A stretch of DNA of 64,000 nt from Paracoccus lutimaris. GTDB lineage: Bacteria; Pseudomonadota; Alphaproteobacteria; Rhodobacterales; Rhodobacteraceae. Within the stretch, counting starts at the first letter, position 1. The number at the start of each line of letters is the position of its first letter. This document shows positions 38,999 to 63,100 of the stretch, piece after piece. The notes under the pieces are model-generated. The model ran no database searches. It was not told where the DNA came from and saw nothing but the letters and a program-made list of their open reading frames with translations. Location of the stretch: assembly GCF_003337565.1 (NCBI RefSeq), contig NZ_QPJL01000003.1:1-64000 (forward strand). Reading direction: 5' to 3'. The translations under genes and the position numbers were made by a program.

Positions 38999-39004
38999 TG
39001 TGAC

Positions 39005-41548: not shown

Positions 41549-41616
41549 TCGACGTTTTGGGGAATTGACTTGGTGGAAGTTTTAAAGTTTGCCTTGCGCA
41601 GTGGAGGAATAATCTG

Positions 41617-42141
41617 ATGGCCTCGGACAAGTCGACCGATTTTCTCAAACGCAATCGCCCGCCCCGGGTGAACATCTCGTACGAAGATCCTTACGATTCG
41701 GAAAAGATGGTTGAACTGCCCTTCGTGCTGGGCGTGATGTCCGATCTGTCCGGTAATGCTTCGCAAGTCGAAAAGCCCGACATGGAAGAGCGCGACTTTG
41801 TCGACGTCACCGCAGCGACGCTGGACGACTATATGAAAAGCATCGCGCCGGGCCTGTCCTTCAATGTCGAGAACAAGCTGGGCGGCGAGGGCGACAGCCG
41901 CGTCGGCGTGTCGCTGAATTTCGAAAGCATGGACGATTTCAACCCCGCCGCGGTCGCCCGCCAGATCCCGGCGCTGAAAAAGCTGCTTGAGGCGCGCCAG
42001 CACCTGGCGAACCTGCAGCGCTACATGAATTCCAAGCCCAAGGCCCAGGACCAGATCCGCAAGCTGCTGAACGACCCCGAGTTGATGGCAGCGCTGGCCG
42101 AACGGGAACAGAAGAAATCGGCTGACGGAGAGGATAGCTGA
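41617..42141 (+). CDS. tssB: T6SS contractile sheath small subunit TssB
   Basis: A 174-residue TssB (VipA/ImpB) protein, which forms the contractile sheath with TssC. Typical sequences are FLKRNRPPRVNISY, ELPFVLGVMSDLSGN and the helical C-terminus with PALKKLLEARQHLANL. GGAGG upstream supports the start, and its stop overlaps the tssC start by one base (TGATG), giving tight coupling for equal production. Confidence 0.95.
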   Translation: MASDKSTDFLKRNRPPRVNISYEDPYDSEKMVELPFVLGVMSDLSGNASQVEKPDMEERDFVDVTAATLDDYMKSIAPGLSFNVENKLGGEGDSRVGVSLNFESMDDFNPAAVARQIPALKKLLEARQHLANLQRYMNSKPKAQDQIRKLLNDPELMAALAEREQKKSADGEDS

Positions 42142-43631: not shown

Positions 43632-43669
43632 CTTTTTGAATAGTCTAGCGTAATCAAGGAGCTCATCTA

Positions 43670-44167
43670 ATGGCTGTCGATATCTTTCTGAAGCTGTCGA
43701 ACAATATCAAAGGGGAGTCGCAAGACGACACCCATCGTAATGAGATCGACGTCCTGGCCTGGAACTGGGGTCTGACCCAGTCGGGCACCACCCATGTCGG
43801 CTCGGGCGGCGGCGGCGGCAAGGTGAATGTGCAAGACATCACCCTGACCAAATATGTCGACTTGGCCTCGAACGACCTGATCAAGCGCTGCACCAACGGT
43901 GAGCACATCGAATCGGGTGAGCTGATCGTGCGCAAGTCGGGCGGCGCCGCGCCGGTCGAATATTTCCGCATCAAGTTCCAGAACATCATGATCACCAGCT
44001 ATTCGACCGGTGGCGCCAAGGATGGTCTGGACCGCATTCAGGAAACCCTGACCCTGAACTTCCGCCGCTTCGAAGTGGCCTACACCCTGCAGGAAGACAC
44101 CGGTGCCGCCGGCGCCGAGACCCTGGCGGGCTGGGACATTGCCGAGAACAAGGAATGGAGCGCCTAA
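43670..44167 (+). CDS. hcp: T6SS tube protein Hcp (TssD)
   Basis: A 165-residue Hcp1-family protein. It shows the MAVDIFLKLSNNIKGES start, the tube-interface HRNEIDVLAWNWG and the GGxKDGLD-type segment late in the protein (GGAKDGLDRIQETLTLNF). Hcp hexamers stack to form the inner tube. AAGGAGC lies nine bases ahead of the start. A hairpin with a U-rich tail follows the gene, suggesting that hcp is expressed more strongly than the downstream baseplate genes. Confidence 0.96.
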   Translation: MAVDIFLKLSNNIKGESQDDTHRNEIDVLAWNWGLTQSGTTHVGSGGGGGKVNVQDITLTKYVDLASNDLIKRCTNGEHIESGELIVRKSGGAAPVEYFRIKFQNIMITSYSTGGAKDGLDRIQETLTLNFRRFEVAYTLQEDTGAAGAETLAGWDIAENKEWSA

Positions 44168-44193
44168 TCGGCGTTTCCTTCAGGCAGTTCTGG

Positions 44194-44228
44194 ACAGGGT
44201 CGGTGCATGTTGCCGGCCCTGTTTCTTT
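44194..44228 (+). terminator. Attenuating terminator after hcp
   Basis: ACAGGGTCGG (44194-44203) pairs with CCGGCCCTGT (44213-44222), with one G-U pair, around a nine-base loop. The tail TTTCTTT follows. It lies between hcp and tssE, where partial read-through would give excess Hcp over baseplate proteins. Confidence 0.6.
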
Positions 44229-44278
44229 ACGCCCGCCCCGTTCTGCGGCGGGGCAGGCGGCCAGCAACGGGGCATGGC

Positions 44279-44860
44279 ATGGCGAAGCGTCGTCAGTCCT
44301 CTGACAGGGATCCGGGCCGGGGCGGCCTGCGTGAAATGTCGCTGATGCATATCTTTCGCGATTCCGCCGCGCGGCGGGATTCGCGCGATCAGGGCCGCCG
44401 TTATACCGAGGGCGAGCGCGACCTGACCGTTCTCAGCCAGAAGCGCCGCGAAGGCGCCAGCGAGGAATCCCTGCGCCGCAACCTTGCCCGCGACATTGCC
44501 AGCCTGATGAACACGATCCGTCTGGATGTCTGCGTCGATCTGGCAGACAATCCCCGCGTGCGTAACTCGGTCATCAATCACGGTTTTCAGGACATGGACA
44601 CGATCTGGCGCGAAAACCGCACGCCCGGCGATCTGGCCCATGCCATCCGCGAGGCCCTGATCCGCAATGAACCGCGCCTGCGCGCCGAGACGCTGGAGGT
44701 CCGTCTTGACGAGATCGCACCGACCGTCGACCAGCGCCTGACCTTTGAAATCATAGCCGAAATGATTGCCGATCCGACCGATATCCCGTTGCAATTCTAT
44801 GCCGAGGTGGACCCCGCCGCCGGCAAGATCGCCATGAAACGCATGCAGGGCGACGCATGA
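44279..44860 (+). CDS. tssE: T6SS baseplate protein TssE (gp25-like)
   Basis: A 193-residue protein with the gp25/TssE lysozyme-like baseplate domain in its second half (LRRNLARDIASLMNTIRLD, RNSVINHGFQDMD, then ALIRNEPRLRAETLEV). The N-terminal 60 residues are unusually basic and rich in arginine. The start is uncertain: ATG 44279 gives MAKRRQSSDRD, while ATG 44336 would give a length nearer the typical 140-175 residues. It overlaps tssF by four bases. Confidence 0.88.
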   Translation: MAKRRQSSDRDPGRGGLREMSLMHIFRDSAARRDSRDQGRRYTEGERDLTVLSQKRREGASEESLRRNLARDIASLMNTIRLDVCVDLADNPRVRNSVINHGFQDMDTIWRENRTPGDLAHAIREALIRNEPRLRAETLEVRLDEIAPTVDQRLTFEIIAEMIADPTDIPLQFYAEVDPAAGKIAMKRMQGDA

Positions 44861-46767
44861 AAAAGGCCTTTCGCGACGCCTATGAGCGTGAACTGGACAT
44901 GCTTTACGAACGCTCGGCCGAATTCGCCGAGGAATTTCCGGGGCTGGCCGAACGCCTTGGCGGCGTGCTGCGCGAGAATATCGACCCGACCATCGCCGGC
45001 CTTCTGGAGGGCACCGCCTTTCTGGCCGCCCGCGTCCAGCTGAAACTGGACGAGGAGTTTCGCGGCTTCACCACCGAGCTGCTGGAACAGATCTTTCCCG
45101 ATGCGCTGGCGCCTGTTCCCAGCTGCATGATGGTCGAGGCACCGCCCTTGACCCGCCAGACCGGCGATGGTGAGCCCAAGGTCTTTGCGCGCGGCGAATA
45201 TCTGGATGCACGGTTTCGCGACGCCGACAAGCGCGTGACCTGCCGCTTCAGCCTGACCTCGCCCCTGGTGGTGCTGCCCCTGACCGTTTCGGATCTGGTC
45301 TATCACGACCGCACCACAACCTTGGGCGGGCTGGGGCAGGACCCCGACCGGCTGAGCAAGGCCGGGTTGCAGATCGACCTGCAGCGCACCGATGGCGAGC
45401 CGATGTCCAGCCATGCGCAGGATGCGCTGACCTTTCATTTCGCCGCCGATCACCAGCGTGCCATCGCGCTTTACGAACAGATCCATTGCAATGTGACGCG
45501 CGCCTCGTTGCGCTGGTTGCAGCCCAATGGCGATGCGGCCTTCATCCGGCTGCGCCCCGACCAGATCGGGCAGATCGGCTTTGAGCGCGACGAACTGCTC
45601 TTCGACCGCAATGGCCGCATGTTCGAAGGCTTTGCCATCCTGCGCGATTTCTTTGCCTTTCCACGCAAGTTCTTGGGCTTTCGCGTCACCGGGCTGAAAT
45701 CCATGCTGGGCCGCATCCCGGCCGATCAGGTGCAGCTCATCGTCGAGTTCGACCGCGCCAGCGACGAACTGGCCCGCCAGACCCAAAAGGGCGATATCCG
45801 CCTGAACTGCGCGCCCTCGATCAATCTGTTCGAGGAAAGCTCGAACCAGGTACGGCTGGACGACCGCCGCCATGAATATGTGGTGACGCCCGATTCCAGC
45901 CCGATCACGCATTACGAGATCCAGCGCCTGCTGCGCGTCCATGCCAGCTATGGCACCGCCCATGACCGGGTCGAAGTGTTCCCGCTTTACGCCCTGCCGC
46001 AGAACGCGACCGCGCCCCGCGCGACCTATTACTATACCGCGCGCCGCAAGCAGCGCCGCCTGACCGAGACCGAGCGCCGCGCCGGGCTGCGCCATGATTA
46101 TCGCGGCACCGAAACCTATATCGCCATCCATGAGCCGCCCGAATCCGTGGTCGGGCGCCGGGCGCAGCGGCTGCATATCCGCGCGCTCTGCTCGAACCGC
46201 CATCTGCCGGCGGCGCTGCCTCTGGTCGGCTCGAACGATTTCAACATGGTCGCCGATCAGGCGATGCCGCTGGCCTGCATCAGCGGCCCGACCCAGCCCC
46301 GCGAAGCCATGTCCGAGGTCGAGCGCGCCGGCCCCCATCGCATGGGTCAGGGCGATGTCTATTGGCGGCTGATCTCGTATCTGTCGCTGAACCATTTCGG
46401 GCTGGACGACCGTTTCGGCCGCGACGGCGCCGCCAGCCTGCGCGAGATCCTGACGCTGTTCGCCGATGCCTCGGACAATGTGACCGAGGCGCAGGTCGCC
46501 GGCCTGACCGGGCTGGTGGTGCGCCCGGTCACCCGCTCGATCCGCCGCCCGGAGGGGTTCTTTCCCGCCCGCGGGCTGGAGCTGACCATCACCTTTGACG
46601 AAACCGCCTTCGAGGGCAGCGGCATCATCCTGCTGGGCGCGGTGCTGGACCGGTTCCTGGCCGAATATGCCAATGTGAACAGCTTTACCCAGACCGTCAT
46701 CAGCAGCCGCCAGCGCGGCTTGATCCGGCGATTTCCGCCGCGCACCGGGCTTGGTCCGCTGATATGA
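44857..46767 (+). CDS. tssF: T6SS baseplate protein TssF
   Basis: A 636-residue TssF (VasA/ImpG) protein with the family start KKAFRDAYERELDMLYERSAEFAEEFP and the following LAERLGG...DPTIAGLLEGTAFLAARV. It forms the baseplate wedge with TssG and TssE. The length matches the family, and it overlaps both flanking genes by four bases. Confidence 0.95.
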   Translation: MKKAFRDAYERELDMLYERSAEFAEEFPGLAERLGGVLRENIDPTIAGLLEGTAFLAARVQLKLDEEFRGFTTELLEQIFPDALAPVPSCMMVEAPPLTRQTGDGEPKVFARGEYLDARFRDADKRVTCRFSLTSPLVVLPLTVSDLVYHDRTTTLGGLGQDPDRLSKAGLQIDLQRTDGEPMSSHAQDALTFHFAADHQRAIALYEQIHCNVTRASLRWLQPNGDAAFIRLRPDQIGQIGFERDELLFDRNGRMFEGFAILRDFFAFPRKFLGFRVTGLKSMLGRIPADQVQLIVEFDRASDELARQTQKGDIRLNCAPSINLFEESSNQVRLDDRRHEYVVTPDSSPITHYEIQRLLRVHASYGTAHDRVEVFPLYALPQNATAPRATYYYTARRKQRRLTETERRAGLRHDYRGTETYIAIHEPPESVVGRRAQRLHIRALCSNRHLPAALPLVGSNDFNMVADQAMPLACISGPTQPREAMSEVERAGPHRMGQGDVYWRLISYLSLNHFGLDDRFGRDGAASLREILTLFADASDNVTEAQVAGLTGLVVRPVTRSIRRPEGFFPARGLELTITFDETAFEGSGIILLGAVLDRFLAEYANVNSFTQTVISSRQRGLIRRFPPRTGLGPLI

Positions 46768-47764
46768 CGCCTGCCGGACCGACGACAGGCGAGGCGGGTT
46801 TTCTGGCGCTGCTGCGCCGGCTGGAGCGCGAACAGGGGCACCGGCCCCGCATCGGCCGCTCGGTCCGGCGCGCGCAGGACATCGCCGATATCGGGCAGGA
46901 CCCGCAGCTGGCCTTTCCGGCCGAGGAACTGCGCCAGCCCGACAGTCCCGGCGACCGCACCCGCATCCGCGCGCAGTTCATGGGCTTTTTCGGCCCGCAA
47001 GGCGCGCTGCCCCTGAACACGACCGAGGAAGTCCTGCGTTGGCAGGACGAGGGCGAGGACGGCTTTGTCCGCTTTACCGACATCCTGTCGGCGCGGTTTT
47101 ACCAGCTTTTCTTTCGCGCCTGGTCGGATGCCCATGCCATCAGCCAGCATGACCGCCCCGACGAGGACCGGTTCGGCACCTATGTCGCCGCGGTGGCCGG
47201 GATGGGCTCGCCCGCGTTTCGCGACCATGACAGCTTTCCTGATATCGCGCGGCTGCCGCTGGTCTCGATCTTTGGGGGGCGGGTGCGCAGCGCGGTGCGG
47301 CTGCGCCAGATGCTGGCCAGCTATTTCGGCCATCCGGTCGATGTTCAGGAACATCTGCCCTGCTGGCTGGAATTCGAATCCGACGACCTGCGCGGGCTGG
47401 GGCAGGGCGGCGCGCTGGGTCAGGACGTCTATCTGGGCGCGCGGCTGCAATCGGTGAACGAAAAGATCTGCATCCGCGTGAACCTGCCCGATGTCAGCGA
47501 ATATCGCACATTCCTGCCCGGCCAGTCCCGTCATCTGCGGCTGGCCGATCTGGTCTTCTGGTATCTGGGCAAATGCATCGAGGTCGATCTGGCCCTTTCG
47601 CTGCCCCCCGACGCCATTCCGCCCGCGCGGCTGGGGGGCGACGCCGCCATCGGCTGGCTTGCCGCCATGCGCCCCGAGGGCATCGACCGTGTTTCCGATT
47701 ACATCGAAGTTGCCCGTTTCGCGCTAAGCCGCGATGCGGGCACGCAGACTGAAAGAGGCCAGGC

Positions 47765-47768
<4 letters not shown>
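46764..47768 (+). CDS. tssG: T6SS baseplate protein TssG
   Basis: A 334-residue TssG (VasB/ImpH) protein. It shows an N-terminal FLALLRRLER region, PRIGRSVRRAQD, FMGFFGPQGALPLNTTEEVL and YLGKCIEVDLAL, as expected for the family. It pairs with TssF in the baseplate wedge. Four-base overlaps join it to tssF and tssH. Confidence 0.94.
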
Positions 47769-50394
<2,626 letters not shown>

Positions 50395-50398
<4 letters not shown>

Positions 50399-51414
50399 CG
50401 GATATAGACGCTGGCGACCCCGGTCAGGGCTTCGGGGCCGACCTCGCGGGCAAGCTGGTCAAAGAATGTCTCGGCCAGCTCGCCGGCGGCGCGGCTGACG
50501 GTCTCGGGGCGGGTGGGGGTTGCCACGGCGATCAGCAATTGATGGGTGTCGCGGGCGTCGCCGTCGCGCGCCACCGGCACCTCAAAGCTGATCTTTCCGC
50601 CTGAATTGACCAGAAAGCGACGCAGGTCGTGGGTGGCACCATTGTCATCGACAAGGATCAGGGAGACATGGCGCCCGGTCGCACCCGAAATCGTGCCGCG
50701 CAGGGTATTGCCGCTGGGCACGTCCTGCGCCGCAAGCTGCACCGCCAGCGGAAAGACCGGATAGCGCAGATCCCGCCGGGCAAAGGTCAGTCCGGGGCAT
50801 TGCCGCGGATCCAGCAGGACCGCCTGTCCGGTGATCTCGGTTTCCAGCCCCTGCGTCAGATCGCGCAGCAGCCCCGGGATCTGGCCGTCATCCGAGGCCA
50901 GCAGGCTTAGCCGGATCTCGCCGTCAGCGGTCAGTGCCGGCAGGGCCAGCAGGCAGGGTGCGGTCAGCCGGGTGCGGATGCGCTCGAACAGCTCGATCAG
51001 GCGGGGATCGGTCTCGGCCGCAGTCTTGGCGGCGGATTCGGGGGCAGATTCGGGGCCGGGCGGGATCTCGGGCGCGGCGGGGGTGGGGGTCTCGGCCCCA
51101 GCCATGGGCAGGGCCATGTTGGGCAGGATCGGCGACATGCCCGCGACCGGGGTCTCTTGTTTGGTGGCGCCGGTTTCAGCCGCAATCTCGGGGGCGGGAA
51201 CCGGGGTGGTGACGGGGGTCAGGATTTCCGCCGGGGCATTGTTGCCGGGCAGGGTCAGGGCGGTCAGCTGGATCGCAACCGGCGTCACCGGCTCATCCGT
51301 GGCCCAGGACCATGTGGGCCGCCAGATCAGCGCCCCCGCCGCTGCCGCATGCACGGAAAGCGAGATTGTCACCGCCAGCGTCCATCCGCGCGCGGTGGCT
51401 TGCGCCCCGATCAT
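50395..51414 (-). CDS. TonB/TolA-like membrane-anchored protein in the T6SS locus
   Basis: A 339-residue protein with one N-terminal membrane segment (about residues 12-32), a long Pro/Ala/Glu-rich periplasmic stretch (about 40-135) and a folded C-terminal domain (about 140-339). The membrane segment contains SLSVH, an SxxxH spacing like the TonB motif needed for coupling to ExbB/ExbD. The C-terminal domain is not an obvious TonB domain; it recalls regions near Ser/Thr kinase-linked T6SS proteins, without certainty. It is last in an ExbB-ExbD-ExbD operon, overlapping the second ExbD by four bases. Probably the energy-transducing arm of that complex. Confidence 0.7.
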
Positions 51415-51806
51415 CCGCCCAGCCCCTTGATCGTGACCAGACGCAATTCATGCCCCGCCAGTTCCGGGCGCCGCATCAGCCCCACGAGCAGCCCCGCAGG
51501 CGCATTGCGGTCCAAAAGCAGATGCACCGGCCCCGGGCTTGCGGCCAGCGCGCCGGGCAGCGCCTCGGGCCGGATGGGCTGGCCGTTCAGCCGCCAGTCC
51601 TCGGGGCCGAGGACCTCAAGCACGGGCGAGGGCAGCGTATCAGGCGACAGCGTGGTGGTGGTCGCCAGTTCCAGCTGGGTCCGGACCTTGGAATCCTGCC
51701 CGGCCAGCAGGAAGTAAAAGATCAGCAGCAGCACGATATTGACGATCGCCAGCGAGGTATCGACTTGCACCTTGCGGCCCCGGCTGGTGGGTAGGCGCAT
51801 GCTCAT
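51411..51806 (-). CDS. ExbD/TolR-like protein lacking the membrane aspartate
   Basis: A 131-residue protein with one N-terminal membrane segment (about residues 18-38) and a short periplasmic domain like ExbD/TolR. In this family a membrane aspartate carries protons. Here the matching position reads IVNIVLLLIFYF, so asparagine stands where the paralogue at 51803-52285 has aspartate. It overlaps that paralogue by four bases. It may be a structural half of an ExbD heterodimer rather than an independent proton carrier. Confidence 0.75.
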   Translation of the reverse strand: MSMRLPTSRGRKVQVDTSLAIVNIVLLLIFYFLLAGQDSKVRTQLELATTTTLSPDTLPSPVLEVLGPEDWRLNGQPIRPEALPGALAASPGPVHLLLDRNAPAGLLVGLMRRPELAGHELRLVTIKGLGG

Positions 51807-52285
51807 GGCGCGGCCCCCGGGGCCGAGGGTGCCTCGGCGATCTGGACCGAGGTGATGCCATGCGCCGACAGCAGTTCCAGCACCGTCGCGACGTTCTGGA
51901 CCGGCACGTCGGGGCGCAGGATGATCAGCACATGCCGGGTCTGTTGCAGCGCAAGGGCGTCGGCCAGCGCCTGCATCCGGTCAAGGCCGAAACGCTGCCC
52001 GGATGCGACGATGCCATCCGGGTTCAGCGTCCAGATCGCGGTGGCGCTGGTCTCGGTCACGGCGGTCGAGGCGCTGGCCGGGGCCTCGCCGCCCCCATCG
52101 CCGCGAAGCGCACCGCTGCGCAGGGACAGCATGGAATAGGCCGAAAGGTTCGAGGACAGCATGAAAAAGATCAGCAGCTGAAACAGCACATCCGCCAGCG
52201 CCGTCATCGAAAAGGCGACACCCTTCCTGCGCCGGACCGGCAGGTCCAGCCCCGGCGCGCGCATCAGGCTGGGCGCGCCCTGCAT
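51803..52285 (-). CDS. ExbD/TolR-like proton-channel protein
   Basis: A 160-residue ExbD/TolR-family protein with one membrane segment (about residues 25-48) containing the expected aspartate in ALADVLFQLLIFFM. A periplasmic domain (about 70-155) ends HGITSVQIAEA. With the ExbB-like partner three bases upstream it should form a proton-driven stator-type motor in the inner membrane. Location between tssH and tssK points to a role linked to type VI secretion. Confidence 0.85.
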   Translation of the reverse strand: MQGAPSLMRAPGLDLPVRRRKGVAFSMTALADVLFQLLIFFMLSSNLSAYSMLSLRSGALRGDGGGEAPASASTAVTETSATAIWTLNPDGIVASGQRFGLDRMQALADALALQQTRHVLIILRPDVPVQNVATVLELLSAHGITSVQIAEAPSAPGAAP

Positions 52286-52288
52286 CGC

Positions 52289-52918
52289 TCAGCCCCGCTG
52301 CGGCCTTGCGATCCGGCCATGGATCGCGGCCGAGACCGCCAGCTCGATGCTTTGGCGTTCGTCATCGATCCGCCCCTCCAGCCAGGCCGAGACGAAATAG
52401 GCCACCAGCGCGATGGCAAGACCGGCGGCGGTGGTGGTCAGGGCGGTCCAGATGCCCCCGGCCAGCAGCCGCGGGTCCGAGCTTTGCTGGCTGAGCGCAA
52501 GGCTGCCAAAGGCGTCGATCATGCCGATCACCGTGCCCAGAAGGCCCAGCATCGGCGCCATCTGCACCACGGCCTCAAGCAGGCGCATGCGCTGGCCCAT
52601 CTGCACCAGCTCGGCCAGCGCGACCTGCCGGCCCAGCTCTTCGCCATAGGCGGGATCGCCGGGGCGGGCGCGCAGCCCGGACATGACCGCGCCAAGGACG
52701 CGCGACAGCACGGTCTTGCCGGCCTGCGCCTTGCGCTGCGCCTCGTCGGGACGGCCGTTCAGCCAGTCGTCCAGAATGGTTTCGCCCAGCTTGTGATGGC
52801 CCACGCCCATGCGGCGGAACTGCATCAGCTTGAAAATCACCACCGTCAGCGTCAGTATCGACAGCCCCGCAAGCGCGGCAAAGACGGCCCAGGTCGTAAG
52901 CGGCAGATCCCAGTGCAT
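52289..52918 (-). CDS. MotA/TolQ/ExbB-type proton channel protein
   Basis: A 209-residue protein with three membrane segments (about residues 12-32, 115-137 and 158-180). The family core MAPMLGLLGTVIGMIDAFGSLA and the following GGIWTALTTTAAGLAIALVAY are the TolQ/ExbB signature. ATG 52918 overlaps the stop of the preceding gene by one base. It forms a motor with the two ExbD-like proteins and probably energises the TonB-like product. Confidence 0.9.
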   Translation of the reverse strand: MHWDLPLTTWAVFAALAGLSILTLTVVIFKLMQFRRMGVGHHKLGETILDDWLNGRPDEAQRKAQAGKTVLSRVLGAVMSGLRARPGDPAYGEELGRQVALAELVQMGQRMRLLEAVVQMAPMLGLLGTVIGMIDAFGSLALSQQSSDPRLLAGGIWTALTTTAAGLAIALVAYFVSAWLEGRIDDERQSIELAVSAAIHGRIARPQRG

Positions 52919-53367
52919 CACAGACCGAAATCAATATCCGTGCGGGTCTGGGTGGCCAGCCCGCCCAGGCAGATGTCGCGCAGATCGGCGCCGTCCTCGG
53001 CGCTGCATTCGGCGACATCGTTGACGACGATGCGACCGATATCGGCGCAGGGGCGGTCCGGCAGCGGGAACAGCCCGACGCGGGTCTTGCCGGCGATCAT
53101 GCCGCCGAAATCAAGGATCGGCAGCGATTGCACGGCCCCGGCCTTGTCAAAGATCGCGACCTGCCAGGCGGCGCGCTTGATCCCGGTCTCCAGCTGATTC
53201 GTCGCCACGATGGTCAGCTGGCAGCCGCCCGCCTTGGTATCCGAGGCGCCATTCAGCTCCAGCATGACACGGCTGTCCGGGCCGGGCGCGGCCGCGTCCT
53301 GGGCCAGGGCAGGAGAGGCAAGGCCAAGGCTCAGCGCGATGAGCAACCTTCCAAAATAGCGCGGCAT
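52918..53367 (-). CDS. Small periplasmic protein, first gene of the Exb-like operon
   Basis: A 149-residue protein with a signal peptide (residues 1-22, ending LAQ) and a mature domain with four cysteines (in GGCQLT, RPCADIG, AECSAED, DICLGG), enough for two disulfides. I do not recognise the family. It is translated with the ExbB-like gene (one-base overlap), so it is likely a periplasmic partner of that motor. ATG 53367 is supported by AAAGGA upstream; a longer open frame to 53706 is not believable. Confidence 0.72.
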   Translation of the reverse strand: MPRYFGRLLIALSLGLASPALAQDAAAPGPDSRVMLELNGASDTKAGGCQLTIVATNQLETGIKRAAWQVAIFDKAGAVQSLPILDFGGMIAGKTRVGLFPLPDRPCADIGRIVVNDVAECSAEDGADLRDICLGGLATQTRTDIDFGL

Positions 53368-53560: not shown

Positions 53561-54004
53561 TTGCTCAATCGGTGCTCTGTCAACCCTGCGTTGTATTTTT
53601 GCCGCCGTGGCCTGTTTGCGGCGCTGGTCGCGCTGCTTCCTGCCGGTGCCGCGCAGGCCGGGTTGCGGCTGTGCAACCAGTCCTTTGACGTGCTCAATGT
53701 CGCCATCGCCGCGCCTGCGGGCGAGGATGTCGTGACCCGCGGCTGGTGGCGCGTGGCCCCGAACCAATGTGCGACATTGCAGCGCGAGACGCTGACGTCA
53801 CGCTATTATTATGTCTTTGCTGCGGATGTATTCGGTAATGAGGTTCTGGCAGGCGCGATTCCGCTTTGCGTGGCGCCGCGCCGCTTCGAGATCGAGGGTC
53901 AGCGCGATTGTCTGCTGCGCGGCTATCTGGACGCGCGCTTCGCCGAGGTCGATACCGGGGATCAGCCGAACTGGACGGTTTTTGTGACACCAAGACCGAA
54001 TTGA
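53561..54004 (+). CDS. DUF1036-type exported protein
   Basis: A protein of about 147 residues with a hydrophobic signal segment (GLFAALVALLPAGAAQA) and a DUF1036-like domain. The domain shows LRLCNQSFDVLNVAIA, a GWWRVAPNQC stretch and paired cysteines, ending at NWTVFVTP. The start is uncertain: TTG 53561 or TTG 53591, since no ATG is in frame; GGAAG lies just upstream of the first. It is divergent from the Exb-like operon across 190 bases and precedes two more exported proteins. Role unknown. Confidence 0.7.
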   Translation: MLNRCSVNPALYFCRRGLFAALVALLPAGAAQAGLRLCNQSFDVLNVAIAAPAGEDVVTRGWWRVAPNQCATLQRETLTSRYYYVFAADVFGNEVLAGAIPLCVAPRRFEIEGQRDCLLRGYLDARFAEVDTGDQPNWTVFVTPRPN

Positions 54005-54022
54005 GGGGTGAAGGGGTCGGGA

Positions 54023-54829
54023 ATGGGCAAGAGGATGATCGTCGCGACATCTCGGATCGGGCTGGCCCTGGGCGGCTGGCTGGCCTGCGCAACGCTGGCA
54101 TTGGCGCAGGGCGGGCTGGTGATCGCGCCGCTGCCCTCGGATGTGGTGATCGGTGCCCAGTCCAATGCGGCGCCGACGGAAACCGTGCTGCCCGCCGGCG
54201 CTGTGGTGACGGCGTTGACGCCGGCCGATCCCGGCCTGTCGGCCTTGCCCGCGGCGCCGCGCGCCGGACTGCCGCGCCCGTCGATCATCGTGGGCGACAT
54301 GGCGATTCTGGCGGCGATGGAGCCGCGCGGGCCGCTGGGCCTGTCCTTCGCGCTGCGCGAGGTGATCCGCCAGCGCGACATCGCGCTGTTCGAGCGGCTG
54401 TTGGGCCGCGGCGTCCTGGACCCAGATCCCGACCGCATGGCCGAGGCGATCCAGACCGAATTGCGTCGCGCCGATTGCTATACCGGCCGCATCGATGGCG
54501 ACTGGGGCAGCGGCTCGGTCCGCGCGGTCGAGCGCTGGCGGCAGGCGGCCGGGGCCTCGGTCGCGGGCGACCCGCAGCCGCAACTGTTCCGCGCCATTGC
54601 CCGCAGCGGCGACCTGCGCTGCGCCGCTATTGTCGCCCCCGTTGTCGTCGCCACGCCGCCCCGGGGCGGCGCGGGCGGGGGCGGCTCGGGCGGGGGTGGC
54701 GCGTCGGGCCGGCCGAAACCGGTCGCGGCAAAGCCCGCGCAACCGGCCAAGCCCGTCCAGCCGGCGAAACCCGCCACCACCTCGCCGCAGTTCAACCCCT
54801 CGATGATCGGGTCGGGGATGTTCCGCTGA
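54023..54829 (+). CDS. Exported protein with a peptidoglycan-binding-like region
   Basis: A 268-residue protein with a signal peptide (residues 1-29, ending ALAQ), a central region resembling PG_binding_1 domains (about 135-185; CYTGRIDGDWGSGSVRAVERW) and a Gly- and Pro/Ala/Lys-rich C-terminal tail (about 210-255). The tail looks like a wall-spanning spacer. ATG 54023 is preferred to GTG 54008. It is five bases upstream of the wall-cutting fusion gene and could anchor or position that enzyme. Confidence 0.7.
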   Translation: MGKRMIVATSRIGLALGGWLACATLALAQGGLVIAPLPSDVVIGAQSNAAPTETVLPAGAVVTALTPADPGLSALPAAPRAGLPRPSIIVGDMAILAAMEPRGPLGLSFALREVIRQRDIALFERLLGRGVLDPDPDRMAEAIQTELRRADCYTGRIDGDWGSGSVRAVERWRQAAGASVAGDPQPQLFRAIARSGDLRCAAIVAPVVVATPPRGGAGGGGSGGGGASGRPKPVAAKPAQPAKPVQPAKPATTSPQFNPSMIGSGMFR

Positions 54830-54833: not shown

Positions 54834-57017
54834 ATGACCAGGGTCGATCCCCGCTTTCGCCAGATGGGCCAGGGGGCGCGTCGCCGCCGCCGGCGCGGAC
54901 TGGCGCTGCGTACCGGGGCCGGGCTGGTGGTCTTCGCGGGTCTCGCGGTGCTGACCTGGCCGCGAATCGCGCCGCAGGTCTTGTCCTGGCTGCAGCCCGC
55001 GCCGGCGGCCACCATGGTTCAGGTCGAGACGGAATTCGACATCGCGCCGGTGGTTCGTGTCGATACCTTCGCCGATATTCCGGGCGATCCCTTGATCATC
55101 CCGGCGCCGCAGGACAACCAGCGCCCCGACATGCAGCGCCGCCCCGCCCCCGCGGCGCTGGCCGCGTCGCGCCGACTGCCCGCGCCGGCGGCCGAACTGG
55201 CGGTGCTCGACAGCCGGCTGATCGCGCAGGACCGCCAGCTCGTCGCGGCGCTGCCCTCGACCCGCGAGGAATTCGCGCTGTTTCAGGCCGAACGTGGCCG
55301 GGGGCGGCTGATGACCGCCGGCCTGAGCGGTGCCGAGGACGTTGCGGGCGTGACGCCCGAGGCGCAGCGCGCAAGTTCGGGCATCGCCTTTCTGCGCGAT
55401 GCGGTCAGCCGCGTGCCGCTGTGGCGCGAGCTGATTCTTGAAACCACCATCGAGACCCGCCCCGAGGCTCTGCTGGCGGCGAATGGCTTCAGCCCGGCGC
55501 AGGCCGACCGCCTGGGCGCGCGCCTGCGCGGACAGCTTGAGCTTGCCGAGACGCTGCCAGCGGGCGCGGTGCTGGCGCTGCGCTATCGGCCGCAAAGCGG
55601 CTTGCGCGAGGTGATCCAACTGACGCTTTACGATCGCGGCGGATATGTCGGGTCGCTGGCGCTGTCGGCGGCGGGGCAGCTGGTGCCGGGGGCCGATGCC
55701 TGGGCGGACCAGCCGCTCTTGCAAAAGGCGCTGGCGGGCGACCCGGCCCCGGCTTCCGCAGGGCAGCAGCGTTTGCTGGACGTGATCTATTCCGCCGCTC
55801 TGCGCAACGAGGTGCCGACCGAGATCATCGGTGAGGCTCTGGCGCTGATGTCGCAGGTCTACGACCTTGACGGCTTTGCCGATGCGCGGGACCGGCTGGA
55901 GCTGATCTATGCCGCCGAAGCTGCGGGGCGTCCCGGCGCGGTGATGTTCGTCGGCGTCAGCGGGCCTTCGGGCGAGAAGCGTTGCTATGTCGTTCCCGCC
56001 GAGGCCGGCGAAGGCTTTGAATGCTATGCTCCGGGGGCGCGCGTTCAGATGCGCGGGACATCGGCGCAATTGCAGCCGCCGGTGGGCGGCGTGCTGTCGC
56101 AGCGTTTCGTGCCGCCCTCGGGCGATGCGGCGCAGGCCGGGCGCGGGCAGGTGGCCTGGACGGTGCCGCCCGGCAACCCGGTGCTGGCCGCCGGTGCCGG
56201 CAGCGTCATTCTGGCCACTGGCGACCGGGTCGAGATCGCGCATGAGGACGGGCTGGTCAGCCGCTATATCGGCCTTGCCGCGCTGGCACCGGCCATCGCC
56301 AAGGGGGCGGCGGTTGCGCGCGGTGCGGTGATCGGCGAAACCGGCCAGATGCCGGGGCAAGAGCAGCCCGAGCTGGCCTTCATGCTGCTCGAGGGCGGCA
56401 GGCCGGTCGATCCGATGCCCTATTTCGGCGGCGGGACCGAGGCGTTGGCCTCGGATTCCATCGAATCGCTGATCGGCCATATCATCCGCGTCGAAAGCGC
56501 CGGCAATGCCTCTGCCAAGAACCCGCGCTCGACCGCGACCGGGCTGGGGCAGTTCATCGAAAGCACCTGGCTGCGGATGCTGCGCAGCTATCGCCCGGAC
56601 CTGATCGTCAGCCTGTCGCGGGCCGAATTGCTGGACCTGCGGCTTGACCCCGACATGTCGCGGCAGATGGTCCGCCATCTGGCCCAGGAAAACGAAGGCT
56701 ATTTGCGCGCGCGCGGCCATGCGATCTCGGCCGGGCGGCTGTATCTGGCGCATTTCCTGGGCCCGGCGGGGGCCGATCAGGCCCTGCGTGCCCATCCGGC
56801 GCAATCGGTGGACAGCGTGATGGGCGCGGCGGTGGTCTCGGCCAATCCCTTCCTGCGCGGCTGGTCCATCGCCCAGCTGCAGAACTGGGCCGAGCGCAAG
56901 ATGAGCGGCTCGGCCGCGATGCCGGCGGTGATGGTGGTGCCCGAGACCCCCGCCTCGCCCCTGATCCGCGCCTTCATGGCCGACATGGACGGCCTGCGCG
57001 GCGCCCGCAAGGGCTGA
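54834..57017 (+). CDS. Degenerate LytM / lytic transglycosylase (SLT) fusion
   Basis: A 727-residue protein with an N-terminal membrane anchor (about residues 24-42), a large periplasmic region, a LytM/M23-like domain (about 400-530) and a C-terminal lytic transglycosylase domain (about 542-650). The SLT catalytic glutamate is present in RVESAGN (residue about 554), followed by ATGLGQF. The M23 zinc ligands seem lost: GRGQVAWTV stands where HxxxD should be, and PELAFM where HLHFE should be. It probably cuts glycan strands to open the wall for the secretion apparatus, with the LytM part as binding or regulatory module. Confidence 0.82.
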   Translation: MTRVDPRFRQMGQGARRRRRRGLALRTGAGLVVFAGLAVLTWPRIAPQVLSWLQPAPAATMVQVETEFDIAPVVRVDTFADIPGDPLIIPAPQDNQRPDMQRRPAPAALAASRRLPAPAAELAVLDSRLIAQDRQLVAALPSTREEFALFQAERGRGRLMTAGLSGAEDVAGVTPEAQRASSGIAFLRDAVSRVPLWRELILETTIETRPEALLAANGFSPAQADRLGARLRGQLELAETLPAGAVLALRYRPQSGLREVIQLTLYDRGGYVGSLALSAAGQLVPGADAWADQPLLQKALAGDPAPASAGQQRLLDVIYSAALRNEVPTEIIGEALALMSQVYDLDGFADARDRLELIYAAEAAGRPGAVMFVGVSGPSGEKRCYVVPAEAGEGFECYAPGARVQMRGTSAQLQPPVGGVLSQRFVPPSGDAAQAGRGQVAWTVPPGNPVLAAGAGSVILATGDRVEIAHEDGLVSRYIGLAALAPAIAKGAAVARGAVIGETGQMPGQEQPELAFMLLEGGRPVDPMPYFGGGTEALASDSIESLIGHIIRVESAGNASAKNPRSTATGLGQFIESTWLRMLRSYRPDLIVSLSRAELLDLRLDPDMSRQMVRHLAQENEGYLRARGHAISAGRLYLAHFLGPAGADQALRAHPAQSVDSVMGAAVVSANPFLRGWSIAQLQNWAERKMSGSAAMPAVMVVPETPASPLIRAFMADMDGLRGARKG

Positions 57018-57165: not shown

Positions 57166-60100
57166 ATGTTCCCGATTAACAAGAATTCGATCAGTCTGAT
57201 CTGCCGCGCCCATCTTCTTCTGACAACCGCACTGATCTCGGTCGCGCCGCTGGCCTTCGGCGGCGGCATGGTCCGGGCACAGATGTATCTGGATAACGGC
57301 GATACGCCCGGCGGCAGCACCTATGAGACCGTCAGCGGCAGCTGGAGCAATGGCAGCCAGATCTGGAACGATGGCAGCGGTGCGGGCGCGCAGAACGACA
57401 CCCTGCCGCCGGACGAGATCGGCGTGCTGACCAGCCAGGGCGGCTCTTCGATCACGCTGACCCTGAATGGCAATATCTCTGCGGGCGGGCTGCGGCTGGA
57501 TTCGGGCGATTACTTGCTGACCGGCGGGACGCTGCGCGCGGGCAATCTCGGCGGCGGCTCATCGGCGATCCTCAGTTTTGCTGTCGCCGATGGCAGCATC
57601 CTGACGATCGCCTCGAATGTCGAGGCCGACGTGAATACGGGCCGTATCGACATCCTCGAGACCGGCGCCGGCACCGGCCAGGTCAGGTTTACCGGCGACA
57701 CCCAGGGGCAGATGGTCAATGCCAGCACCGCCCGCCATTCCGGTCAGCATACCGGCGATCTTCAGAACGACGGGACCTTCCAGCTGACCGGTGATATCGA
57801 CGGCGATCTGACCAACTCCGGCAGCTTCACCCTTGCCGGCAATGTCGAAGGGCTGATCACGAACTCGGGTCTGATTGCGACGGGTCTGACCGGCGGGACC
57901 GCGGACAACCTGACCAACCTTGCCGACAGCACCGTGGTTGTCGGCGAGGGGCAGACGCTGACCGTCGACAACGAGATCCAGAATAGCGGCACCATCCAGC
58001 TGAATGCGACCGGGACCGGTTTCGGCACGCTGGACGCGGATGTGAACAACCTGACGGGCAGCATCCTGCGCCTGGGCAATGGCGGCCGGGTCGAGGGCTC
58101 GCTGGTCAATGCTGGCCAGATCGGCGGCACCGGTACCATCACCGGCTCGCTCAACAACCTCAATTCCGCCGCCATCGCCGGGAGCATCGGGGGCGCGGTC
58201 ACCAACGACGGTACGCTGACAACCGTCGGCAACCTGAGTGTCCTGTCGGCGACCAATGGCGGGACGCTGAACGTGGGCGCGGGGCACGAGCTGAATTCCG
58301 GCTCGGCCATGGTGAACAACGGCGTGATCAACCTTGCCGGCGATCTGCTGGATGGCGTGACGAACAACGCCGGCAGCACCATCAACATGACCACCGCCGG
58401 TTCGGGCATCGACGGCAGTGTCACGAATGCCGGCACCATGAACATCATGGGCGCGATCGAGGGGCAGCTTTACAACCGCGGCGTGGTCACGACCGCCGGC
58501 GACGTCGAGGTCGACAGCCTGTATGTCGCCGCGGCCGGAAGCACCACGATCGGCGCGGGGCACGAACTGACCACGACGCAGCTGGCGCAGAACTTCGGGA
58601 CCACGACGGTCTCGGGCACGCTGAACGGCAGCATTCACAACAGCACCCTTGGCGGGGTCATCGGGCGGCTGGATCTGACCGGCGGCGCCATCAACGGCAA
58701 TGTCGACAATGACGGCGTGATGAATGGCCGTGGCAGCGTGTCCGGCCTGGTGGACAATTCCGGCACCCTGAACACCACCGGCACGCTTTCGGTGGGAAGC
58801 CTGATCAACAGCGGCACGACTGTGGTCCAGAGCGGCAATCAGCTGAACTCGGCCGGATCGATCCTCAACTCGAACCAGATGACCGTGAACGGGACCGTTT
58901 CGGTGGCAACAGGCAGCCAGCTGACCAATAGCAGCACCGGCACGCTGACCCTGGCGGGGGCCCAGATTCTGGGAAGCATCACCAATGACGGCGACATGGA
59001 TGTCAACAGCAACTCGCGCGTCCAGGGCAACCTGACGAACAACGCCAACCTGTCGCTGAATTCGACCGGCGGCGCCGATGTCACGCTGACCGTGGACAAT
59101 ATCTTTGTCAACCGCGGCACGGTCGATGGCACCGGCACGGGCGATCTGACCATTGTCACCAACCTTTACGACAATGACGGCGGCACGGTCGCCAACGTGA
59201 ACGTGATCGGCGACCTGCTCAACCGCAGCACGCTGACCTATTCCGAGGATTCCTTCATCAATGGCGGCCTGCGCAATGCGCAGACGGGTTCGGTCACGGT
59301 CTCGGCCGGTCTGGACATGACCGACCATAACGTCGTGAACCAGGGCAACTTCCTTGTCACCACCGACGCCGATTCGACCGGAAACCTGCATAACGTCGTT
59401 GAGCTGACGAACAGCGGCAATTTCACCATCGACACCAACGCCTCGGTTGAGGCCGGTTCGGCGGAGAACGCCGCCCCCGGCACGATGACGATTGCCGGCA
59501 CCTTGGACTCGAACCTGCTGAACCGTGGTCAAGTCGACATGGACGGCGGGGTGGTCGACGGCCAGCTGACCAATAACGGCGAGCTGAACGGCACCGGTAC
59601 GGTGATCGGCGGACTGGTCAACAATGGCACAAGCACCATGACCGGGGAGGTCCGGAACCGGCTGACCAACGAAGGTACCGTGATCCTGAACGGCGAGTTG
59701 CAGGTCGGGGAGCTGCACAACAACGAGCAGTTCAGCATCGGCGCCTCGGGCATACTGCAATCGACCACCACTGCCCAGAACGCCGGCAGCCTGACCGTTG
59801 CCGGCCGGCTCGAGGCCAATCTGCGCAACACCGGCACCACGACGCTTGTCGCTGGCAGCACCATCCTCGGCAACGTCAACAATACCGAAGATGGGGGGCT
59901 GAACGGCAGAGGTACGATTTCGGGCGCGCTGGCCAATGCCGGGACCGCCCAGATCGGCGGCCACGTCACCGGTCAGGTCACGAATACCGGCAGTCTGACC
60001 TCGGTCGGGCCGCTGCGTGTCGGCGGGCTGACCAACGAGCAAACGCTCATTGTCGGGACGAGCAGCACGCTGACCTCGGATACGGCCGTGCTCAACGAGG

Positions 60101-63100
60101 GTGCCGCGTCGATCCACGGCACGCTGGTTGCCGCGCTGAACAATACCGGCACCACGACGCTAGCGAATGGCCGAGTGACGGGTGCGGTCACCAACACCCA
60201 AAACGGCCTGCTGGACGGCACGGGCCAGATTTCGGGTACGCTGGCCAATGCCGGGACGGCCGAGTTCGGCGGCCGCGTTACCGGTCAGGTCACGAATACC
60301 GGCAGGCTGACCTCGGTCGGGACGTTGCGCGTCGGCGGGCTGACCAATAGCGCGACGCTGACCGTCGCCGAGGACAGCACCCTTCAGTCCGACAGCGCCG
60401 TCCAGAACAACCAGCTGACGACCATTGCCGGGCGCTTGCAGGGCGATCTGAACAATGCCGGCACCACCACGATGTCTGGCGGTTCGGTGACGGGCACGCT
60501 GATCAACACCAACCAGCTGAGCGGCGACGGTACCATCGAGACGCTGGACAACCGCGGCACCGCAGCGATGAGTGGGCGGGTCGATACGCTGGCCAATACC
60601 GGGACGCTGTCCAGCCGGGGTAGGCTCAGCGTCGGTTCGCTGACCAATGACGAACTGGTGCGTGTCACGGCCGGATCGACCCTGAGCATGGACAATGCGC
60701 TGCTGAACCGCGACCGGCTGATCGTCGCCGGCACGATCGAGGGGCGGCTCGACAACCGCAGCAGCACGGTCATGGTCGGGGGCACGATCGATGGTTCTGT
60801 CGACAACGCGGCCAGCGGGACCTTCTCGGGCTCGGGCAGGGTCGACGGCACGCTGACCAATGCCGGAACCCTGACCGCTGACGGCGATCTGAGCGTCGGG
60901 CGGTTGATCAATAACGCCACGGTCGATGTCTTGGAGGACGGGGAACTGAGCTCGGACACCGCGGTCAGAAACAACGCGGCGCTGCGCGTGGCCGGCACGC
61001 TGGCGGCGGATCTGCTGAACGGCGCCGCCGGCACCACGACCCTGGCCAATGGCACGATCGACGGCAATGTCAGCAATATCGGCTCGCTGACCGGCACCGG
61101 CACGATCACCGGACAGCTGGCCAACAGCGGTGTTGCCAGGATCGCTGGCGAGGTCACCGACCTGCTGAACCTGTCCGGCGGCCGGCTGACCACCTCGGAC
61201 GATCTTGCGGCGACCAGTTTCAGCAATGCCGGGCAGGCGGTCATTGCCGCGAATACCGAGCTGACGGTGACGAATCCCGTGCAGAACGTCAGCGGCGGTG
61301 TGCTGCAGATCAATGGCAGCCTGCTGGGGTCGCTGGCCAATGCCGGGACGCTGAACGGGGCGGGGGAAATCTCGCAAACGGTAAGCAACGGCGGCATCGC
61401 CAACTGGCGCGGCCGGATCGGCGGCAGCTTCGGCAACAGCGGCACCGCCAATCTGGGCGGCTCGATCGCGGGCGGCCTGGAAAATGCCGATGGCGGCGTC
61501 GTGACCACGGTGGGCGACCTTTCCGTCTCTGGCGAAAGCGGCGTGACCAACAGGTCGGGCGGGCGCTTCGTCGTTGCCGATGACACGACCCTTGCCGTGA
61601 CCCACGCGCTGACGAACGAGCGGGGCGGCCACCTGACCGTCGCAGGCGAGTTGCAGGGCAGCGTGACCAATGCCGGGACCATCGTGCAGACCGGGTTGCT
61701 GACCGGCACGTTGACCACCACGGGCAGCGCCAGCCTGAACGGCCTGATCACCGGCAACCTGAATTATGACGGTGGCTCGCTGCTGACCGGCGACAATTTC
61801 CGCGTCGGCGGCGATTTCCGGCTGGGGCATGACTACACCATCGAGGCCGGGCGCCAGATCAATGCCGCGCGTACGGTGGTGACGGCAGGCAGCACGCTGG
61901 ACCTGAATGGCGCGCTGGTCGGCGCGCTGCTCAACAATGGCCGGGTCGAGGTGCGCGGCGACGACGCCAGCGTCAGCGGCCTTGTCACCAACAACCGCGT
62001 GGTCTCGCTGTCGAACGGCGCCGGACAGGCCAATGTCGGCACCGATGTGCTGACCGTGGGCGGGCTTGCGGGCGGCGGCAGCTATTATCTGGACGTCGAT
62101 ACCCGCAATGCCACCGCGGACCAGATCGTCGTCAGTGGCGGCGCGGCGACCGGCACTTACCGGTTGGAGCTGAACTTCATCGATCCGAGCACGGTTCTGA
62201 GCACCAACAACCGGCTGATGCTGATCGACGTGGATGAAAGCTTCGGCGACCAGAACACCTACGACATCACGCATAGCGACCTGCCCGCGATCTCCGAGCG
62301 GATTTCCTATTCAATCGACCGCGCCTCGGGCAATGGCGACGCGACGCTGGTGGCGCAGACCAACCCCGCCATCGGCGCGCTGTTTGGCAATGTGGCACTG
62401 ACCCAGTCGCTGATCGGCTCGGTCATCAACCGCCCGACCAGCCCCTTCGTCACCGCGCTGGCCTACGAGGACAAGGATAAGCCCTGCGGCGTCGGCAGCT
62501 GGGGCCGGATCACCGGCGGTCACGCCACGGCCACCGGCTCGACCGACAACGGTGTCAGCTCGGTCGAAAGCGAGATCACGGCCGATTACTACGGCATGCA
62601 GGTCGGCACCGATCTGGCCTGTTTCGACGACCGTTTCGGCGGTTGGGACATGGCCCTTGGCGTGCTGGGCGGCATCAACCGCGGCGATACCAACCAGCCG
62701 GTCTATGCCATCGACCCGAACAATTCGCAGAACGTCACCGGCACGCTGACCAGCTATACCTCGACCGATTTCGAGCAGCGCTATGTCGGCGTCTACATGA
62801 CCGCGAACCGTGGCCGCCTGCAGGCCGACCTGCAATACCGTCTGGAAAAGACCGATTTCACCATCGAGAACAAGGGTGTCGGCAACTATCAGGGGCTTGG
62901 TCTTGACGAGACCGATTTCTCCAGTGACGGGTACACGCTCAGCGGTTCGCTCAGCTACGGCATCCCGGTCGGTGAAAGCGGCTGGGCGGTGGTGCCGACC
63001 GTGGGCTTCGCCTGGTCGAAAATGTCCACGGATTCCATCCCCTTCGGCGGCACCGGGACGGATGCAGGCTATCGGCTGAGCTTTGACGACAGCACCCGCA

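What the first reader, a model, noticed from the sequence alone, without database searches (positions are those of the whole stretch)
50395..53367. An Exb/Tol-like motor with a TonB-like arm inside a type VI secretion locus
A complete operon for an ExbB-like protein, two ExbD-like proteins, a TonB-like arm with the SxxxH membrane motif and a cysteine-containing periplasmic protein lies between tssH and tssK. T6SS loci are not normally known to need a proton-driven stator. It may supply energy for opening the envelope, for positioning the wall enzyme, or for outer-membrane export of the neighbouring proteins.
Basis: partly seen in the sequence, partly recalled or inferred. Interest (0 to 1): 0.8.

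Follow-up and report, generated by a model that had tools for sequence, protein, structure and literature searches.

The report
Repurposed TonB-type motor beside T6SS kinase
Some marine and soil bacteria carry, inside one type of toxin-injection gene cluster, a proton-driven motor of the TonB kind whose arm tip has been replaced by the sensor domain found on that cluster's own signalling kinase, which hints that the motor helps decide when or where the weapon is used.

Summary
Five tightly packed minus-strand genes (53367-50395) encode a periplasmic protein, ExbB, ExbD1 (membrane Asp kept), ExbD2 (Asn instead) and a TonB-like arm, between tssH and tssK of a Paracoccus T6SS. The operon is typical of one Rhodobacterales T6SS class: the arm is in 42 of 44 genomes with that class (43 counting ExbB), against 6 of 346 others.

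The arm is not a true TonB. Its C-terminal 200 residues lack TonB_C and are homologous to the periplasmic domain of the Ser/Thr kinase of the same loci (hhalign E 1.7e-29; near-identical order of strands and helices in both models). Related operons outside T6SS keep TonB_C, so the tip was probably exchanged. The arm also co-occurs with a giant autotransporter (47 of 48 arm genomes). In three genomes motor, kinase, phosphatase and autotransporter sit together without T6SS core genes nearby.

Best reading: a proton-driven envelope arm tied to kinase signalling, perhaps also to the surface adhesin, that regulates this T6SS. Anatomy and conservation are shown; the mechanism is inferred. Moving the adhesin or opening the envelope remain rivals; ordinary TonB or Tol function is unlikely.

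The parts
52918..53367 (-). Periplasmic protein with signal peptide and conserved Cys ('peri'); relative of the first gene of non-T6SS exbB-exbD-exbD-tonB operons
52289..52921 (-). ExbB/TolQ-like motor protein, MotA_ExbB family
   Evidence: PF01618 8.8e-26; tree
51803..52285 (-). ExbD1, membrane-helix Asp kept
   Evidence: PF02472 3.9e-12; Asp in 98 of 98 loci
51411..51806 (-). ExbD2, Asn at the aligned membrane-helix position
   Evidence: Asn in 97 of 98 loci, Ser in 1
50395..51414 (-). TonB-like arm: N-terminal membrane helix with SxxxH, Pro-rich linker, kinase-type C-terminal domain
50398..50994 (-). C-terminal domain of the arm (199 aa), homologous to the periplasmic domain of the T6SS Ser/Thr kinase; two conserved Cys
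47765..50398 (+). tssH (ClpV), convergent neighbour of the arm gene
53561..54004 (+). DUF1036 protein; a relative is seen in most of the related T6SS loci
   Evidence: PF06282 4.1e-36
54008..54829 (+). Protein with a peptidoglycan-binding-like domain; related genes elsewhere carry a caspase domain
   Evidence: PF01471 4.3e-4, below its cut-off
54834..57017 (+). M23 peptidase plus SLT domain
57166..63438 (+). Giant autotransporter (repetitive passenger, C-terminal barrel-like region), directly upstream of tssK
63564..64000 (+). tssK, continues beyond the window
38414..47768 (+). T6SS genes: DUF6931 protein, tagH (FHA), tssA-like, tssB, tssC, hcp, tssE, tssF, tssG

Best explanation
The operon is a proton-driven Exb motor related to the alphaproteobacterial exbB-exbD-exbD-tonB type and recruited, probably once, into one class of T6SS. 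Its arm no longer has the TonB_C domain that engages outer-membrane receptors; it carries instead a domain homologous to the periplasmic domain of the locus's Ser/Thr kinase (shown). Most likely (inferred) the motor works the arm in the periplasm so that arm and kinase, which share this domain, touch each other or a common periplasmic or outer-membrane partner (candidates: the peri protein, the peptidoglycan-binding-like protein, the autotransporter). Energised movement, load or contact on the arm would then change kinase activity and, through the FHA protein TagH, decide when and where the T6SS is assembled. Where the unit is separated from T6SS genes it presumably still senses or organises the envelope or the adhesin.
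For: The motor tracks one T6SS class: arm in 42 of 44 class-B genomes, within 60 kb of tssK in 33 of 44. Arm C-domain against kinase periplasmic domain: hhalign prob 99.8, E 1.7e-29, 192 columns; the arm profile also hits the kinase of the window's own genome, E 9.2e-12. Both domains are modelled confidently (pLDDT 93.9 and 91.7) with nearly the same order of strands and helices. 40 of the 42 surveyed genomes with a kinase hit also have an arm hit. In many related loci arm and kinase genes are tail-to-tail neighbours. TonB_C found in the 2 non-T6SS arms tested and in none of the 6 arms of this kind tested (window; L006, L007, L053, L098, L102). Motor genes of T6SS loci and unlinked units form one clade. 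Published precedent: a periplasmic input protein binds the kinase's periplasmic domain (RtkS in Serratia, TagR in Pseudomonas as summarised there; PMC6082577, passages); a TssW-PpkA-Fha axis controls T6SS position and initiation (PMC12607579, abstract).
Against: No interaction was tested; a shared domain shows common ancestry, not contact. In the window itself arm and kinase genes are not neighbours (arm beside tssH, kinase about 20 kb away). One class-B genome (G149) has tssK, kinase, autotransporter and peri but no motor of this type; its best ExbB match scores 32 bits. 8 of 48 arm genomes gave no kinase-domain hit (at most 8 candidates per genome were scored). Kinase and phosphatase also occur in the class-A loci of two genomes without arm (G307, G285), so the pathway does not need the motor. 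In G322 and G363 the unlinked unit stands beside a distant class-A T6SS with its own kinase and phosphatase, so its output there is unclear. The autotransporter follows the arm at least as closely as T6SS class does (phi 0.93 against 0.90).
Confidence: 0.42

Rival explanations
1. The motor acts on the giant autotransporter: it helps to display, move or retract this surface protein, much as GldLM drives the adhesin SprB in Flavobacterium, and the T6SS profits from the resulting cell contact.
For: Autotransporter barrel family in 47 of 48 arm genomes and in 5 of 342 others; in 49 of 50 class-B or arm genomes against 0 of 20 control T6SS genomes. It stays with the unit in G322, G363, G073 and is present in G281. 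GldLM precedent: PMC8986121, abstract and passages.
Against: Autotransporters are generally held to need only the Bam machinery (recalled). No TonB_C in the arm. In most class-B genomes the autotransporter gene sits by tssK rather than by the motor (39 of 43 within 3 kb of tssK). G149 has it without the motor. G291 has the arm without it.
Confidence: 0.27
2. One reading: the motor powers envelope opening or wall remodelling for the T6SS, standing in for the missing outer-membrane lipoprotein TssJ and working with the M23/SLT enzyme.
For: No TssJ (PF12790) linked to any of the 44 class-B tssK genes, while 11 of 11 class-C control genomes have it. An M23/SLT and a peptidoglycan-binding-like protein lie beside the motor in many loci.
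Against: Class A also mostly lacks TssJ (found in 4 of 15 genomes tested), yet 48 of 55 class-A tssK genes are in genomes without the arm. In three genomes the unit stands without T6SS core genes nearby, although each has a class-A T6SS elsewhere, so action in trans is not excluded. G149 has the T6SS genes without the motor.
Confidence: 0.18
3. An ordinary TonB or Tol system that merely sits in a T6SS island.
For: ExbB and ExbD1 belong to those families, and operons of the same layout with TonB_C arms exist, for example in a Roseivivax heme locus and in Ruegeria.
Against: No TonB_C in the 6 arms of this kind tested. Separate clade. No TonB-dependent receptor annotated in the 8 plasmid T6SS stretches (gene tables incomplete). 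NCBIfam TolQ and ExbB scores far below cut-off. Linkage to T6SS genes across many genera.
Confidence: 0.04

Closest known systems
TonB-ExbB-ExbD systems of the two-ExbD type (peri-exbB-exbD1-exbD2-tonB) outside T6SS loci
   Same: Same gene order, homologous peri, ExbB, ExbD1 and ExbD2, Asp/Asn pattern of the two ExbDs, membrane helix with SxxxH in the Ruegeria arm
   Different: TonB_C replaced by a kinase-type periplasmic domain; separate clade; tied to T6SS, kinase, phosphatase and autotransporter
T6SS threonine phosphorylation pathway (PpkA, PppA, FHA; TagQRST or RtkS input)
   Same: Kinase, PP2C, FHA and TagF genes in the locus; the arm carries a relative of the kinase's periplasmic domain
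   Different: No motor is mentioned in the passages or abstract I saw (PMC6082577, PMC12607579); the domain here gave no convincing Pfam match
Tol-Pal system
   Same: TolQ/TolR-type motor with a periplasmic arm
   Different: NCBIfam tolQ 50.5 against a cut-off of 221, tolR 17.8 against 127.3, tolA 13.2 against 59.45; no Tol-Pal gene recognised among the window proteins scanned
Proton-driven adhesin or gliding motors (GldLM of Flavobacterium; AglRQS-Glt of Myxococcus, recalled)
   Same: A proton-driven inner-membrane motor together with a very large surface protein
   Different: Other arm domain, and an autotransporter in place of SprB; GltJ model 8.4 bits against a cut-off of 450; movement untested
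Roseobacter T6SS1 with the fused sheath protein TssCL (PMC9515649, passages)
   Same: Roseobacter T6SS reported without tssJ
   Different: Probably my class A, five genomes of which show a long second VipB match; 48 of 55 class-A tssK genes lie in genomes without the arm

Membership tests
TonB-ExbB-ExbD system | ExbB of the MotA/TolQ/ExbB family | tested here: met
   PF01618 8.8e-26, cut-off passed
TonB-ExbB-ExbD system | ExbD with a membrane-helix Asp | tested here: met
   ExbD1 Asp in 98 of 98 loci; ExbD2 has Asn in 97 and Ser in 1
TonB-ExbB-ExbD system | Arm with N-terminal membrane helix and SxxxH | tested here: met
   Window has SLSVH; His in the helix of 50 of 51 arms examined, Ser four residues before it in 36 and Ala in 14
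TonB-ExbB-ExbD system | TonB_C / TonB_2 C-terminal domain | tested here: not met
   0 Pfam families in the window arm (E up to 1) and in arms of L006, L007, L053, L098, L102 (E up to 0.01), against PF03544/PF13103 in the 2 non-T6SS control arms
TonB-ExbB-ExbD system | TonB-dependent receptor in the neighbourhood | tested here: inconclusive
   None annotated in 8 plasmid T6SS stretches, but PLSDB gene tables are incomplete and receptors may be encoded elsewhere
Tol-Pal system | TolQ, TolR and TolA at curated score | tested here: not met
   50.5/221, 17.8/127.3 and 13.2/59.45 bits
T6SS class B (my label, by tssK score) | Motor present in genomes with this class | tested here: met
   Arm in 42 of 44 genomes, 43 of 44 counting ExbB in G311; G149 lacks it
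T6SS threonine phosphorylation pathway | Kinase, PP2C and FHA protein in the locus | tested here: met
   Pfam matches for kinase, PP2C and FHA/TagH
T6SS threonine phosphorylation pathway | The motor arm acts on the kinase | not testable with these tools
   Only domain homology shown
Proton-driven adhesin motor (GldLM type) | Motor moves or secretes a surface adhesin | not testable with these tools
   Co-occurrence with the autotransporter only

The most novel reading that the evidence does not exclude
A proton-driven motor is a physical input to a bacterial Ser/Thr kinase: the motor's arm and the kinase carry the same kind of periplasmic domain and form, or compete for, one complex with the envelope or the giant adhesin, so that energy state or mechanical load at the surface is turned into phosphorylation that licenses T6SS firing. 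This would be a mechanosensing kinase circuit built from TonB parts, and separable from the T6SS genes.
Probability: 0.3. Interest if true: 0.88.

Novelty: new variant of a known kind. Interest (0 to 1): 0.72.

Why it matters
T6SS firing is usually described as powered by sheath contraction and recycled by the ClpV ATPase (recalled); a conserved proton-driven motor inside a T6SS class would add an energy source or a sensor. The replacement of TonB_C by a kinase-type domain gives a concrete, testable link between proton motive force, surface contact and the threonine phosphorylation pathway, whose input signal was still called unknown for Serratia in the work I saw in passages (PMC6082577). It also shows Exb motors to be modular: the same motor type with a new arm tip.

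Tried and rejected
Rejected: ordinary TonB or Tol function. Rejected: the motor as a general T6SS part, since most class-A and class-C genomes lack the arm. Rejected: the motor as a simple replacement for TssJ, since class A mostly lacks TssJ as well. My first idea, that the arm domain is DUF4384, found no support: no Pfam match of the arm at E up to 1, and only three weak, unrelated single matches among 23 kinase domains.

Led nowhere: PDB sequence search of the arm domain, 0 hits at E up to 10. Fold search: the C-terminal half (80-199) resembles immunoglobulin-like sandwiches, best Z 8.9 to a nanobody and 8.8 to a DUF4785 protein; too common a fold to name a relative, and the N-terminal half was barely tested. 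Promoter and terminator scan of 50200-54000: 0 promoter-like sites, 2 terminator-like sites against 1.6 expected. Class-wide, 2 of 385 genomes matched the arm domain, the window's own and G003 of the same family; yet brought a Rhizobiaceae MAG (L055) with the arm and two Roseibium-type loci (L096, L097), so the draw misses rare cases.

Limits and rows dropped before counts. Profiles A1 and A6 were built from some of the very loci that they then find (A1 from 9 T6SS arms, the window included; A6 from 8 barrels, the window and the unlinked units of G322, G363 and Pseudorhodobacter E13 included), so those matches are by construction; the remaining ones are not. In one search arm hits were those of 100 bits or more, kinase hits those between 24 and 100; G176 (22.4 bits) and G175:C8 (20 bits) were not counted, and G291:C276 (22.3 bits) was counted as a kinase only. 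One search keeps only the best 80 of 563 relatives. In one search, L110 (duplicate of L053), L056 (no ExbD found), and loci that were duplicates, had no ExbB or had an incomplete motor were left out. In one search duplicates (L003, L104, L110, L112) and the truncated arm of L021 were dropped; arms of L121-L123 were fetched later and are not counted; L099 showed no membrane-helix His. Class limits for tssK were set by me on PF05936 scores and are no published scheme. Fisher p-values are not corrected for kinship. The rows called 'iron/other' are simply the non-T6SS rows; iron function was seen only in some neighbourhoods. On re-reading I corrected two points of my draft: G281 has no T6SS-type ExbB in its assembly, so it is a weaker case than I first wrote, and the receptor row of the membership test is inconclusive.
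Full report
WHAT IS THERE. The window is bases 1-64000 of contig 3 of a 4.2 Mb genome whose nearest relatives at this locus are Paracoccus. On the minus strand, 53367-50395, lie five genes in tight succession: a secreted periplasmic protein ('peri'), ExbB, ExbD1, ExbD2 and a TonB-like arm. They run against the T6SS genes and end in a 4-base overlap with tssH. I recognised these T6SS genes: DUF6931 protein, tagH, tssA-like, tssB, tssC, hcp, tssE, tssF, tssG and tssH before the motor, and tssK, tssL (DotU plus OmpA), tssM, tagF, PP2C, Ser/Thr kinase and VgrG after it, from 63564 on and beyond the window; no TssJ is linked. Between motor and tssK lie a DUF1036 protein, a peptidoglycan-binding-like protein, an M23/SLT enzyme and a 2090-aa autotransporter. 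The genome has a second T6SS on contig 1.

CONSERVATION. In plasmid records the motor genes recur beside T6SS genes in Paracoccus, Rhodovulum, Sagittula, Thioclava, Leisingera and Tritonibacter. Weaker ExbB relatives in Ruegeria, Phaeobacter and Roseivivax lie in stretches without T6SS genes, two of the three beside iron or heme genes. Of the 80 best loci found by ExbB in genome contigs (563 relatives in all), all 38 from L018 to L055 carry the arm (L021 only in part, at a contig end), and 35 of these 38 show at least one T6SS core gene within the fetched flanks (exceptions L037, L046, L053; L021 and L043 by tssH alone). In 390 Rhodobacterales genomes tssK occurs in 111. Sorted by score into classes (my labels), class B, the window's, counts 44 genes in 44 genomes. 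The arm (profile A1, 100 bits or more) is in 48 genomes, 42 of them class B; it lies within 60 kb of class-B tssK in 33 of 44 cases, while 48 of 55 class-A and 15 of 16 class-C tssK genes are in genomes without any arm. G311 has the T6SS-type ExbB although the arm was missed, which leaves G149 as the only class-B genome without the motor; there peri stands 24 bases from the kinase gene with the motor genes absent.

THE ARM IS NOT A TRUE TONB. Two arms from non-T6SS operons have TonB_C and TonB_2. The window arm and five more (L006 and L007 from T6SS loci, L098 from a split locus, L053 and L102 from unlinked units) have no Pfam domain. [quoted passage not shown] The arm profile alone finds the kinase of the window's genome with E 9.2e-12, and 42 surveyed genomes have such a kinase hit, 40 of them with an arm; the other two are G149 and G311. 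Two Cys are shared: 38 of 38 arms at both columns, 20 and 22 of 22 kinases. AlphaFold2 models of an arm and a kinase domain (pLDDT 93.9 and 91.7, pTM 0.90 and 0.86) show nearly the same order of strands and helices, read by eye from the listings: the arm has one more helix at its start, and one short strand listed for the kinase is only two residues long in the arm. No PDB relative was found by sequence; the second half of the arm domain is immunoglobulin-like.

THE MOTOR. Over 98 loci ExbD1 has the membrane Asp in 98, and ExbD2 has Asn in 97 and Ser in 1; this holds for T6SS and non-T6SS operons alike, so the asymmetry is probably older than the T6SS link. On a quick tree of ExbB, ExbD1 and ExbD2 the 50 T6SS rows and 4 unlinked rows form one clade (SH-aLRT 100), apart from the 42 other rows, among which the two Roseibium-type T6SS rows fell on a long branch; the 4 unlinked rows form one nested clade (99). 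Holding T6SS, unlinked and Roseibium rows together is not rejected and even scores better (AU p 0.754); holding the T6SS rows together without the unlinked ones is rejected at p 0.032. This fits one recruitment followed by later separation, without proving it.

PARTNERS. The barrel family of the giant autotransporter is in 52 of 390 genomes: 47 of 48 arm genomes and 5 of 342 others. In the targeted set it is in 49 of 50 class-B or arm genomes and in 0 of 20 control T6SS genomes. In G322, G363 and G073 the autotransporter, PP2C and kinase genes lie next to the convergent arm operon, without T6SS core genes in the neighbouring stretches fetched; each of these genomes has a class-A T6SS elsewhere, which in G322 and G363 was seen to carry its own kinase and phosphatase. 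G281 has no tssK and no tssC match; there the autotransporter is followed directly by PP2C, and ExbD1 (cut), ExbD2 and arm by a small FHA gene, on two short contigs, but no T6SS-type ExbB is in its assembly, so the case is weak. In G169 a class-B-type membrane set (tssL, tssM, tagF, kinase, motor) lies on the same contig as class-A sheath and baseplate genes. So the unit is usually, but not always, tied to class-B T6SS core genes.

TSSJ. PF12790 is not linked to any of 44 class-B tssK genes; it is present in 11 of 11 class-C control genomes and in 4 of 15 class-A genomes tested. Missing TssJ alone therefore does not explain the motor.

INTERPRETATION. Shown: the operon, its conservation, the arm tip without TonB_C, its homology to the kinase domain, and the co-occurrence with the autotransporter. 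Inferred: that the arm acts on kinase signalling. The inference rests on the shared domain, on the frequent tail-to-tail neighbourhood of arm and kinase genes in related loci (not in the window itself), and on published cases where a kinase's periplasmic domain is the site of input (PMC6082577, passages) or a TssW-PpkA-Fha axis controls T6SS position and initiation (PMC12607579, abstract). A motor that moves the adhesin, as GldLM does with SprB (PMC8986121, abstract and passages), is the strongest rival.

LITERATURE. Searches listed no paper whose title or shown abstract start is about an Exb motor as part of a T6SS. The main texts of three works on T6SS in these or related bacteria hold none of the Exb terms that I looked for (PMC9515649; PMC4337385; PMC9113992; passages seen only); the last mentions a plasmid T6SS group including Rhodobacteraceae that may be a new subtype. 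The library lacks most subscription journals, so this is no proof that nothing is in print.

Noticed in passing
window 51411-52285 and the 98 loci: In the two-ExbD operons examined, T6SS-linked or not, ExbD1 keeps the membrane Asp and ExbD2 has Asn (97 of 98) or Ser, suggesting an asymmetric ExbD pair with one proton-carrying partner.
   Followed up: partly
window 57166-63438: Giant autotransporter with a barrel family found in 52 of 390 Rhodobacterales genomes, 47 of them with the motor arm.
   Followed up: partly
L103 (G149): T6SS locus in which peri stands next to the kinase gene with exbB, exbD1, exbD2 and arm missing: a natural motor-less relative.
   Followed up: partly
L053 6695-8596; L098; L096; L097: Relatives of the peptidoglycan-binding-like gene in other loci carry or neighbour a caspase (Peptidase_C14) domain; none was found in the window's copy.
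   Followed up: no
L136-L139 and L101 (G169): Class-B-type membrane genes and motor on the same contig as class-A sheath and baseplate genes: an apparent hybrid T6SS locus.
   Followed up: no
G322, G363, G073, G169, G230: Second VipB match in open frames of 1305-1655 aa in class-A loci, fitting the published fused sheath protein TssCL (PMC9515649, passages).
   Followed up: partly
G000:C1:43050-51920: Second T6SS in the window's genome, class C by score, with TssJ next to tssK and no arm hit on that contig.
   Followed up: no
L096, L097: Roseibium-type T6SS loci with peri, ExbB and DUF1036 on one strand and ExbD-like and arm-like frames on the other; motor genes on a long branch.
   Followed up: partly
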